In this document: positions 8,672 through 12,127 of the stretch, one piece after another
Position numbering within the stretch: position 1 is the first letter of the stretch
Layout of the letters: every line of letters begins with the position of its first letter
Assembly (NCBI GenBank): GCA_012520615.1
Contig: JAAYNX010000222.1
Coordinates: forward strand, 1-52,653
DNA: 52,653 nt
Direction of reading: 5' to 3'
Source: Clostridiaceae bacterium
GTDB taxonomy: Bacteria; Bacillota; Clostridia; DSM-8532
The notes under the pieces: generated by a model
What the model was told of the DNA's origin: nothing
The model's database searches: none
The model's input: the letters and a program-made list of their open reading frames with translations, nothing else
Position numbers and translations under genes: made by a program

Positions 8672-8800
8672 ACCACCCTCTCCTCCAACGCTTACGAGAT
8701 TAGCTGACGGGTTCGGATCGAAAGAGTATAACCCTACCGGTTTACCGGATTCACCCCATAAATTGGTTTTCCCGCTCTTTAATAGCAAAGATTAAGCGCT
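8672..8800 (-). ncRNA. ydaO-yuaA type (cyclic-di-AMP) riboswitch aptamer
   Basis: Minus strand: CGCTTAATCTTTGCTATTAAAGAGCGGGAAAACCAATTTATGGGGTGAATCC...TAGGGTTATACTCTTTCGATCCGAACCCGTCAGCTAATCTCGTAAGCGTTGGAGGAGAGG, matching the remembered ydaO consensus blocks (AGAGCGGGRRAMCCAA, GGGGUGAAUCC, CUCUUUC, CCGAACCCGUCAGCUAA.CUCGUAAGCG). Confidence 0.92.
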
Positions 8801-9118
8801 TACTTTATTTGAACAACCTCAGAGATGCAACATCGCATAAAGACGTTAGAAAATTATATGCGGCAATCTAATAGAATATTCGCAGTTTGTAAGCTTTTTA
8901 ATTTTAACATAAAATCTTCGGACCGGTCAAATTCCCCTCTATAGCTATGTTCCTCCATAGCTAAAAATCAATAATTGTATCAACTTGAAAATTGTATTAA
9001 TTTTCTATTTTATCTGCTGTATAATGTTATAAATTGTATATTTGTAAATGCTTATTATTATTACTTTTTTATGTTACTAATAACTGTTTATTAATTGTAA
9101 ACATGGGAGGAATTTGAT

Positions 9119-9595
9119 ATGAGTAAAGTAAAAAAAATAGGGTTAAAAATTAACACAAAAGCATTATTAGTGATATCGCTTTTAGTTGTGCTTCTTGGCT
9201 GTTTCGAAATGTCTACAGACGTATATGCAGCAGGAGAAAATTTTGATCTCGGTAAATCTTGGACTATGAGGCTTGATGGACCTGAAATGGGGTCTAAGCC
9301 ATACTATCATATACACTTTTATTATAAAGGTGCACAAAAATATTGTTTGCGACTAGACACTTTGCAACCTTGTGATGGATATAAGAGTAATCCAGTACCA
9401 AATTGGGCGATGAAAAAGGCTAAAGGTTACGTGGGGAACAAATGGGGAAGTGCTATTTCTTCTTCCACTATTAGTTGGGGAAAAGCATTGCTTGTGGTTG
9501 GATGCGTTCTATTAATAGTTATTGCAACCATTTGTCCATTTGATGGACCAGCAGGTGATGCAGTAGCATGGGGGCTCTTGCTAGGAGTTGTATAA
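9119..9595 (+). CDS. Small secreted/membrane-associated Cys-containing protein, possible bacteriocin or toxin-like precursor
   Basis: 158 aa; N-terminal signal (KALLVISLLVVLLGCFEMSTDVYAA), compact middle domain (YYHIHFYYKGAQKYCLRLDTLQPCDGYK), hydrophobic C-terminus. RBS GGGAGGAA. Stop overlaps the next start (TAATG). Confidence 0.8.
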   Translation: MSKVKKIGLKINTKALLVISLLVVLLGCFEMSTDVYAAGENFDLGKSWTMRLDGPEMGSKPYYHIHFYYKGAQKYCLRLDTLQPCDGYKSNPVPNWAMKKAKGYVGNKWGSAISSSTISWGKALLVVGCVLLIVIATICPFDGPAGDAVAWGLLLGVV

Positions 9596-10257
9596 TGAGA
9601 TTGGAGGATATAGTTAAGGGAAATATAATCAATAGTCAAATTTCTTTTGACATTTATGAAAAAAACATAGCTATAATTGGGAAAAATGGTAAAGGAAAAA
9701 CAACTTTGTTACGTATATTATCTGGCAACGTCTTACCGGATAAAGGAAGCGTAATATTAGATGAGAAAATATTCTCATTTCCGTTAGAATGGTCTCAAGT
9801 TACAAAATATCAACGTTCTATTAGGAATAAAACCTTGTATTTTGAAAATCAGAATTACTTATATTCTAATTTCACCTGTATGCAAAATGTTAAATATTGT
9901 ATGGCAGATGGGAGTTTTAATAAAGAACTCTTTTGGGAGACATTGGAGGAATTTGAATTTGATAAAAGATTTTTAGAAAAAAAAGTAGAAGAATTATCAC
10001 TTGGGACAAAACAAAAAATCTCTCTGTCATTAGCATTTTCATCTAAAAGGCCAATCATTCTTTTAGATGAACCAACATTAGGACTTGATATAGACTCAAA
10101 AAATGTATTTCTGGAATTTGTAAAAAGTAATAAAAATAAGAGAAAAATTGTAATATCATCAAACGACAATTCTGTTTTAGATGGGTTTAATACATTTTTG
10201 TTATGTGAAGACGGAGAGGTGAGAGAGAGTCATGTTAATCCGTATGGTAAAAGCTGA
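9595..10257 (+). CDS. ABC transporter ATP-binding protein
   Basis: Walker A GKNGKGKTT, signature-like LSLGTKQKISLS, Walker B IILLDEPTLGLD. Start at 9595 overlaps the upstream stop. Confidence 0.93.
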   Translation: MRLEDIVKGNIINSQISFDIYEKNIAIIGKNGKGKTTLLRILSGNVLPDKGSVILDEKIFSFPLEWSQVTKYQRSIRNKTLYFENQNYLYSNFTCMQNVKYCMADGSFNKELFWETLEEFEFDKRFLEKKVEELSLGTKQKISLSLAFSSKRPIILLDEPTLGLDIDSKNVFLEFVKSNKNKRKIVISSNDNSVLDGFNTFLLCEDGEVRESHVNPYGKS

Positions 10258-11020
10258 ACTTAAATATATTTACTATGAAATGATTTCAGTTAGTAGGACA
10301 AACATTATATTTATAGGCTTATTTTTATCTTTGTTTGCATATTGCTCTTTTAACGGGAAATCACTAGCACAATATACAAGTGCAGAAAGTTATTTTATTA
10401 TACAGAGTACATCAATTTATATTTTGTTGCGAATGGTTTTATCAGGAATATCTTTGCCGAATAATGTGTTTGATGCAGAATTAAGAAGTGGCCGCTGTTT
10501 TGGGAATAATGGAATCGTTGATGCGAAAATGACAACTAAATATTCAATAAGAATTTTAATAAAAGCATTTTTTGCAAGTATACTAAATATAGTGACTATG
10601 TTTTTTATTATGTATTCACTTAATCTTGTAGTTGAAATAAAAAATTATATTCTTATAACGATATTAATTATGATAGGAACATTATATCTATTATCAATAG
10701 GATTTATAATTAATACTATTATGCGTGCCTTTTATCTTAAAAGAGAATTAATAATAGCCTTTGAAATTTTGTTTCTAATATTGTATTTTCTTATGAATGA
10801 AGATAGTCATCTTTTTCCCATAACTATTTTAATGACTCAGTTGTCTGGGGTACTTAGCAACGATATATTATATTCAAAATTTCTTTTAAATGAGATTATT
10901 GGATATGCCCTATTATGGATTGCAATGATTTTCTTTAGTATTATTATAGTTTATTTATCAAATTGCGTAACATCAATATTGTTAACAAGGGATTCGTATG
11001 GGAGGAAAAATGAAAAATAA
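10232..11020 (+). CDS. ABC transporter permease-like integral membrane protein
   Basis: 262 aa with about 6 predicted hydrophobic segments; overlaps the end of the ATPase gene. Confidence 0.8.
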   Translation: MLIRMVKAELKYIYYEMISVSRTNIIFIGLFLSLFAYCSFNGKSLAQYTSAESYFIIQSTSIYILLRMVLSGISLPNNVFDAELRSGRCFGNNGIVDAKMTTKYSIRILIKAFFASILNIVTMFFIMYSLNLVVEIKNYILITILIMIGTLYLLSIGFIINTIMRAFYLKRELIIAFEILFLILYFLMNEDSHLFPITILMTQLSGVLSNDILYSKFLLNEIIGYALLWIAMIFFSIIIVYLSNCVTSILLTRDSYGRKNEK

Positions 11021-11453
11021 AATTTTAGTCGGACTAATTCTGATATTAATTATTTTTAATGTTTGTATAATTAAAAAGTCTATGAAAAAAGATATTAAAC
11101 TACTGTATAATGAAAATGAATTATCTGAATTGTTACAAGGTATATATCCTGCCAATATATTGGTGGATTTAAGGGAAAGAGAGGATTATGAGGAGGGGCA
11201 TATAGATGGATTTCTTAATATACCATCTAATGATGGAATTGAGTTATTAGAATATCTAAAAAATAACGAACTTGAAAGAAAATCAATTTATGTAATGTGT
11301 TATTCAGGAAGAAGAGCTGCTGCAGCCTTTGAATTGCTGCAAAAAAATGGATACCCGTATATAACGTATATTACATTTGGCTATGAGGATTACGTAAATA
11401 GTCAAGATGGATTTATACCCAAAACGGGCCAATGCGATTGCTTAGCTGATTAG
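10998..11453 (+). CDS. Membrane-anchored rhodanese-domain protein
   Basis: N-terminal TM (ILVGLILILIIFNVCII), rhodanese motifs LVDLREREDYEEGHIDGFLNIP and active-site loop CYSGRRA; C-terminal CDC. Alternative start at 11010. Confidence 0.9.
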   Translation: MGGKMKNKILVGLILILIIFNVCIIKKSMKKDIKLLYNENELSELLQGIYPANILVDLREREDYEEGHIDGFLNIPSNDGIELLEYLKNNELERKSIYVMCYSGRRAAAAFELLQKNGYPYITYITFGYEDYVNSQDGFIPKTGQCDCLAD

Positions 11454-11466
11454 GGAGGAGAAAATT

Positions 11467-11793
11467 ATGGAACATGAATTTTATTGCAGAGTAAGAAGAT
11501 ATTTCAGAGATAACGATTATGAAATGTGGAGTGTAGAATTTGATTATGGAGAAGGGTATCTAGCCGAAGATAAAATAGTGTTAAACTGGAACCATAACAA
11601 GCCTAATGTCCTCTGGCTTATTAAATTGGAAGGCAGGCTGAAATCAGAAGAATATGAGAGTATTGTTTTAGGGTTGTTTGAAGATGTTTCAGGAGGAGAA
11701 GGAACGTTTATTTTAAAGCGTAAACTTGATACAAATGTTGAAGAGTATGATGTGAACAACTTAATTGATGAGTATACAAAGGTTTTTGGCTGA
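11467..11793 (+). CDS. Small soluble hypothetical protein, possible immunity or accessory protein
   Basis: 108-aa ORF 13 nt after the rhodanese stop with RBS GGGAGGAGAAA; acidic, no signal peptide. Confidence 0.75.
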   Translation: MEHEFYCRVRRYFRDNDYEMWSVEFDYGEGYLAEDKIVLNWNHNKPNVLWLIKLEGRLKSEEYESIVLGLFEDVSGGEGTFILKRKLDTNVEEYDVNNLIDEYTKVFG

Positions 11794-11894
11794 TAATATT
11801 TGGAAATACCCATATCCATAATAATCGAGGTTAAGATGGTGGAAACATATCATCAGGCACAAAGAGGCCAATTTGGGATCATGCTGTCATCTAG

Positions 11895-11950
11895 AGCTTC
11901 GTTGAAGCCCTACCTCTACCCGCACCTAAGAGGTATGGAAATCTTTTTTT
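11895..11950 (+). repeat. IS200/IS605 right-end-like hairpin remnant (copy 2)
   Basis: GAGCTTCGTTGAAGCCCTACCTCTACCCGCACCTAAGAGGTATGGAAATCTTTTTTT: GTTGAAGCC followed by a CCTACCTCT/AGAGGTATGG hairpin, the layout typical of tnpB-associated right ends. Confidence 0.45.
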
Positions 11951-12127
11951 CCTTATAATTTTTGGAAACAAATAATTGTTATCTATACTTTTAAATTCTA
12001 TTCTTTTATAATACAATAATGAGAACCTTAGCGATTAATGCAATCCGAATTGCTTAACGATAATAAGGAAGCCTTCCGATTACGATAAAAATATTAACAT
12101 TAGACAACATGAAAGTGAGTGCAGATT

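What the first reader, a model, noticed from the sequence alone, without database searches (positions are those of the whole stretch)
9119..11793. Five-gene cassette: secreted Cys protein, ABC ATPase, permease, tethered rhodanese and small soluble protein (candidate undescribed export/immunity system)
Seen: five same-strand ORFs packed with overlaps (TAATG between genes 1 and 2, 26-nt overlap between 2 and 3, 23-nt between 3 and 4, 13-nt gap before 5). Gene 1 has a signal peptide, a compact HIHFYYKGAQKYCLRLDTLQPCDG domain and a hydrophobic Gly/Ala-rich C-terminus. The block is more AT-rich than its neighbours and sits between a dapB leader and an IS605-like end. Known: small exported peptides with dedicated two-component ABC transporters are typical of bacteriocin and self-immunity loci. 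Inference: gene 1 is the effector, genes 2-3 export or immunity, gene 5 immunity or an accessory. The rhodanese is not a usual part of the bacteriocin loci I know.
Basis: partly seen in the sequence, partly recalled or inferred. Interest (0 to 1): 0.72.

Follow-up and report, generated by a model that had tools for sequence, protein, structure and literature searches.

The report
Mobile bacteriocin-like toxin, ABC, rhodanese cassette
Five neighbouring genes, acquired as one block by this clostridial genome and found in the same order in one other species, most likely make a small secreted toxin against other bacteria together with the pump, the sulfur-handling enzyme and the self-protection protein that go with it.

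Summary
In detail: five same-strand ORFs at 9119-11793 with the stated packing. It is a real unit: the same five genes in the same order occur in Lacrimispora amygdalina (L002; 60-71% identity each, purifying selection) between unrelated flanks, and four congeners have the empty dapB-asnA site, so about 3.0 kb was inserted here. Gene 1 is a secreted protein with an N-terminal 'HxH' beta domain and a hydrophobic tail. Its domain is homologous to (i) proteins on small plasmids (B. pumilus pPL10, pPL7065 and others), each followed by a small-protein gene, and (ii) the segment before the predicted pore-forming Tox-WTIP domain of an RHS polymorphic toxin. One distant Clostridia homologue also has an ABC ATPase gene behind its pair. 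I read the cassette as a bacteriocin-like membrane-active toxin with ABC export or self-protection, a membrane-tethered rhodanese that may handle the toxin's four conserved cysteines, and gene 5 as immunity candidate. The rhodanese is the new element: the other stand-alone homologues lack both conserved mature cysteines and a rhodanese. Not shown: toxicity, gene 5 as immunity (no detectable homology to the plasmid partner proteins), any rhodanese reaction, and the 'IS605-like end'.

The parts
8933..11953 (.). Inserted stretch, absent from the dapB-asnA interval of four congeners (approximate limits)
   Evidence: Congener intervals of about 514-591 bp against 3.5 kb here; flank matches end at 8913-8942 and resume at about 11954
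9119..9595 (+). Gene 1: secreted protein, signal peptide, HxH beta domain, hydrophobic C-terminal tail; proposed toxin
9595..10257 (+). Gene 2: ABC transporter ATPase
   Evidence: Pfam ABC_tran E 1.2e-22; Walker A/B and signature by sequence, no H-loop His
10232..11020 (+). Gene 3: multi-spanning membrane protein, proposed ABC permease
   Evidence: Hydrophobicity segments, position next to gene 2, 63% identity in L002; no family match
11010..11453 (+). Gene 4: membrane-tethered rhodanese with CYSGRR loop and C-terminal CDCLA[DE] motif
   Evidence: Pfam Rhodanese E 1.5e-13, PDB relatives, one N-terminal TM, conserved motifs
11467..11793 (+). Gene 5: small soluble acidic protein, candidate immunity protein
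   Evidence: No family match, 61-62% identity in L002; model unusable, pLDDT 45

Best explanation
The block is a horizontally acquired bacteriocin-like cassette. Gene 1 is made as a precursor and secreted by the general pathway (inferred from its signal peptide); its HxH domain carries a hydrophobic, probably helical tail that inserts into the membrane of competing bacteria (inferred). Genes 2-3 form an ABC transporter that exports the toxin or clears it from the producer's membrane (inferred, direction unknown). Gene 4, a rhodanese anchored at the membrane, acts on the conserved cysteines of gene 1, in maturation or as thiol protection (inferred). Gene 5 protects the producer from inside (inferred, weakest step). 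Shown are conservation as a unit, acquisition, secretion-type anatomy and domain homology to toxin-associated proteins.
For: Five genes conserved in order in L002 under purifying selection; empty site in four congeners; low GC in both hosts. Gene 1 domain shared with secreted proteins on small plasmids that form two-gene modules (profile-profile E 5.5e-9; mature part above all 15,000 shuffles). Same domain in front of Tox-WTIP in RHS protein L015, listed as pore-forming with two membrane helices (PMC3482391). ABC ATPase gene 13 nt behind the distant pair in G242. Four cysteines conserved in both cassettes, none conserved in the homologues without rhodanese.
Against: No toxicity data. The tail of gene 1 is not shown homologous to Tox-WTIP, and the direct gene 1-L015 comparison is weak. 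Gene 5 is not related to the plasmid partner proteins by any test. The cassette is known from two related copies only, so the cysteine-rhodanese link is one evolutionary case. The tail helices are low-confidence in the model.
Confidence: 0.6

Rival explanations
1. Gene 1 is a secreted signal or envelope protein and the ABC-rhodanese set is an envelope-stress or sulfur-handling module without a toxin.
For: No toxicity test was possible; the rhodanese belongs to a superfamily with stress members such as PspE; gene 5 has no link to known immunity proteins.
Against: Shared domain with an RHS polymorphic-toxin C-terminus and with two-gene plasmid modules; patchy, mobile distribution, absent from the other 31 held genomes of the family.
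Confidence: 0.2
2. Genes 2-4 are an immunity or detoxification set against someone else's peptide, and gene 1 is the sensor or decoy rather than a weapon of the owner.
For: Two-component ABC pairs often give peptide resistance (general knowledge); gene 2 shares weak similarity with lantibiotic protection ATPases.
Against: Gene 1 and its homologues travel without ABC genes on small plasmids, with only a small partner gene, which fits a weapon plus immunity better.
Confidence: 0.12
3. The five genes are a chance neighbourhood of unrelated genes in an AT-rich stretch.
For: Only low GC.
Against: Same five-gene order in L002 with different neighbours and a single inserted stretch here.
Confidence: 0.02

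Closest known systems
Two-gene modules of plasmids pPL10, pPL7065, pBP-B171 (B. pumilus), pESS17301d (Clostridioides) and relatives, annotated 'hypothetical protein'
   Same: Signal peptide (or N-terminal extension in Clostridioides), homologous HxH domain, mostly a hydrophobic tail, a small soluble protein encoded nearby
   Different: No ABC or rhodanese genes in the module, no conserved mature cysteines, partner protein unrelated to gene 5 by sequence
RHS polymorphic toxins with Tox-WTIP (PF15654)
   Same: HxH-type domain followed by a hydrophobic C-terminal segment
   Different: Gene 1 is free and Sec-type secreted, has no RHS repeats and no PF15654 match
SdpC cannibalism toxin family
   Same: Secreted precursor with a hydrophobic, cysteine-bearing C-terminal stretch (general knowledge)
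   Different: No TIGR04032 match, no sdpAB or sdpI-like neighbours
Lactococcin 972 type bacteriocin loci
   Same: Secreted bacteriocin with an ABC ATPase/permease pair (general knowledge)
   Different: Gene 1 has no family match; gene 2 scores 78.9 bits against a cut-off of 254.85 for TIGR03608; the rhodanese is extra

Membership tests
HxH secreted-protein family (pPL10 type) | Homologous (D)LGxGW..R.D.P..HxH domain in the mature protein | tested here: met
   hhalign prob 95.9, E 5.5e-9; mature-only hmmsearch 18.7-19.7 bits against at most 10.9 for 15,000 shuffles
HxH secreted-protein family (pPL10 type) | Adjacent partner gene of the B type | tested here: not met
   Gene 5 against B profile: prob 0.2, shuffle z 0.4 and -0.3
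HxH secreted-protein family (pPL10 type) | Killing of related bacteria with producer immunity | not testable with these tools
   Needs expression and indicator strains; I recall pPL10 as a killer plasmid, paper not held
Tox-WTIP polymorphic toxins | Match to PF15654 | tested here: not met
   No Pfam match for gene 1 at E up to 5; no hit in own genome
Tox-WTIP polymorphic toxins | Two membrane-spanning helices in the C-terminal segment | tested here: inconclusive
   Model draws helices 115-138 and 144-157 at pLDDT about 50; one strong hydrophobic segment 123-141
SdpC family | Match to TIGR04032 | tested here: not met
   (the model does ring in the B. subtilis control)
Lactococcin 972 ABC system | ATPase above the TIGR03608 cut-off | tested here: not met
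   78.9 bits against 254.85
ABC transporter ATPase | ABC_tran domain with Walker A, signature, Walker B | tested here: met
   E 1.2e-22; motifs GKNGKGKT, LSLGTKQ, ILLDEP in the sequence; H-loop His replaced by Asn
Rhodanese | Rhodanese domain with active-site cysteine loop | tested here: met
   PF00581 E 1.5e-13, CYSGRR loop; sulfurtransferase activity not tested

The most novel reading that the evidence does not exclude
A family of free bacteriocins shares its carrier domain with RHS polymorphic toxins, and in one branch a membrane-tethered rhodanese with a C-terminal CxC motif has become a dedicated thiol-modifying (disulfide- or persulfide-forming) maturation enzyme for the cysteine-bearing toxin.
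Probability: 0.17. Interest if true: 0.75.

Novelty: new variant of a known kind. Interest (0 to 1): 0.52.

Why it matters
If right, it gives a name and a likely function to a protein family now annotated as 'hypothetical' on small Bacillus and Clostridioides plasmids, links free bacteriocins to RHS polymorphic toxins through a shared domain, and offers a testable case of a rhodanese serving a secreted antibacterial protein.

Tried and rejected
Genes 1, 3 and 5 against Pfam, NCBIfam, PHROGs: no convincing match. PADLOC: only generic ATPase hits for gene 2. Gene 1 against PDB sequences: none. Foldseek of the gene 1 model against PDB and BFVD: nothing at E <= 0.001. Gene 5 model: pLDDT 45, not used. 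Gene 5 as a homologue of the plasmid B proteins: looked plausible by eye, failed shuffles. Weak hits L005, L006 and L016 were dropped: no comparable gene there. Home of the full cassette on mobile records: viral contigs and plasmids gave nothing for gene 1, gene 3 or gene 5; phages were searched only with the distant homologue L004. Wider spread: the gene 3 profile found only the own genome among 388 of the class, gene 1 only the own genome in the family and order, and A6 nothing new in the family of G242. Literature on rhodaneses in bacteriocin loci: none found that describes one (titles and abstracts only); pPL10 killing papers not held.

Full report
Observation. The five ORFs, their strand and their junctions are as described. 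Gene 4 more likely starts at 11010, the start that aligns with its relative. The cassette has 30.4% GC against 38.4% in the window.

The block is a unit. A scan of one genome for each of 85,462 species with gene 1 found one close relative, L002 in Lacrimispora amygdalina; that scan reaches close relatives only. There all five genes follow in the same order at about 71, 60, 63, 64 and 61% identity, with pN/pS 0.25-0.43. Its cassette has 30.6% GC with flanks at 40-42%, and the flanking genes differ from ours. In congeners G010, G009, G006 and G008 the dapB and asnA genes that flank our cassette lie about 514-591 bp apart; alignment places the extra DNA here at about 8933-11953. None of the 31 other held genomes of the family has gene 1. 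So this is an acquired block; the element that moved it is not visible.

What gene 1 is. It has a signal peptide, a predicted four-stranded beta domain with a following helix (residues 41-108, block means of pLDDT 65-88) and a hydrophobic tail drawn as two helices at low confidence. A profile of the two close copies found L004 in genome G242 at E 2.4e-4; L004 led to proteins on plasmids of B. pumilus, B. altitudinis, B. badius, Priestia flexa and Clostridioides. Nearly all of these keep the secretion-type N-terminus, the HxH domain and a hydrophobic tail, and in the six loci opened each is followed by a gene for a soluble protein of 134-157 aa. With signal peptides removed, a profile of the distant members scores mature gene 1 at 18.7 bits and the L002 protein at 19.7 bits, above all 15,000 shuffled sequences (best 10.9). 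A wider profile search brought up L015, an RHS protein whose last ~130 residues are an HxH segment followed by Pfam Tox-WTIP, E 3.3e-17. Zhang et al. 2012 (PMC3482391) list Tox-WTIP under pore-forming toxins, with two membrane-spanning helices. The link from gene 1 to L015 runs through the family profile; the direct comparison is weak. The tails are not shown to be homologous.

Neighbours. In G242 the L004 gene is followed by its partner gene and, 13 nt further, by an ABC ATPase gene with 30% identity to gene 2; the permease-like frames behind it contain stops, so that copy may be broken. An ABC gene beside this domain thus occurs outside the two close cassettes, but in one case only. Gene 2 has Walker A, signature and Walker B motifs; the H-loop histidine is replaced (sequence). 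Gene 3 matches no family. Gene 4 is a rhodanese with an intact CYSGRR loop, one N-terminal membrane segment and a C-terminal CDCLA[DE] motif in both copies. Gene 5 matches nothing and is not demonstrably related to the plasmid partner proteins.

Mechanism. Shown: conservation, acquisition, secretion-type anatomy, domain homology to toxin-associated proteins. Inferred: the tail inserts into target membranes; the ABC pair exports or clears it; gene 5 is immunity. The most original point is the rhodanese. Gene 1 keeps four cysteines in both cassettes (C76 and C85 in the domain, C129 and C139 in the tail), whereas the stand-alone homologues without a rhodanese have no conserved mature cysteine. 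This fits a thiol-modifying or thiol-protecting role, but the two cassettes are close relatives and count as one evolutionary case.

Status. It looks like a bacteriocin locus in anatomy; by the tests made it is not a member of SdpC, lactococcin 972 or Tox-WTIP. I recall from older literature that pPL10 carries a killing activity in B. pumilus, but that paper is not held, and I could not check which genes are responsible.

Noticed in passing
window 8673-8808, minus strand: Strong c-di-AMP (ydaO/yuaA) riboswitch match (100.5 bits) directly upstream of dapB on the minus strand; its conserved core is also in the congeners' dapB leaders. I did not establish whether c-di-AMP control of dapB has been reported.
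   Followed up: partly
   Followed up: partly
L012 4995-5372: The B. badius plasmid homologue lacks the hydrophobic tail (ends in a basic stretch), so it may be truncated or have another tail.
   Followed up: no
L038 9515-11200: ABC ATPase gene and permease-like frames with stops behind the L004-type gene pair in G242, lying between two transposase-like ORFs.
   Followed up: partly
L018 1495-2121, minus strand: Second RHS protein with a Tox-WTIP end; its segment before the tail has a different His-rich motif, not tested for homology to the HxH domain.
   Followed up: no
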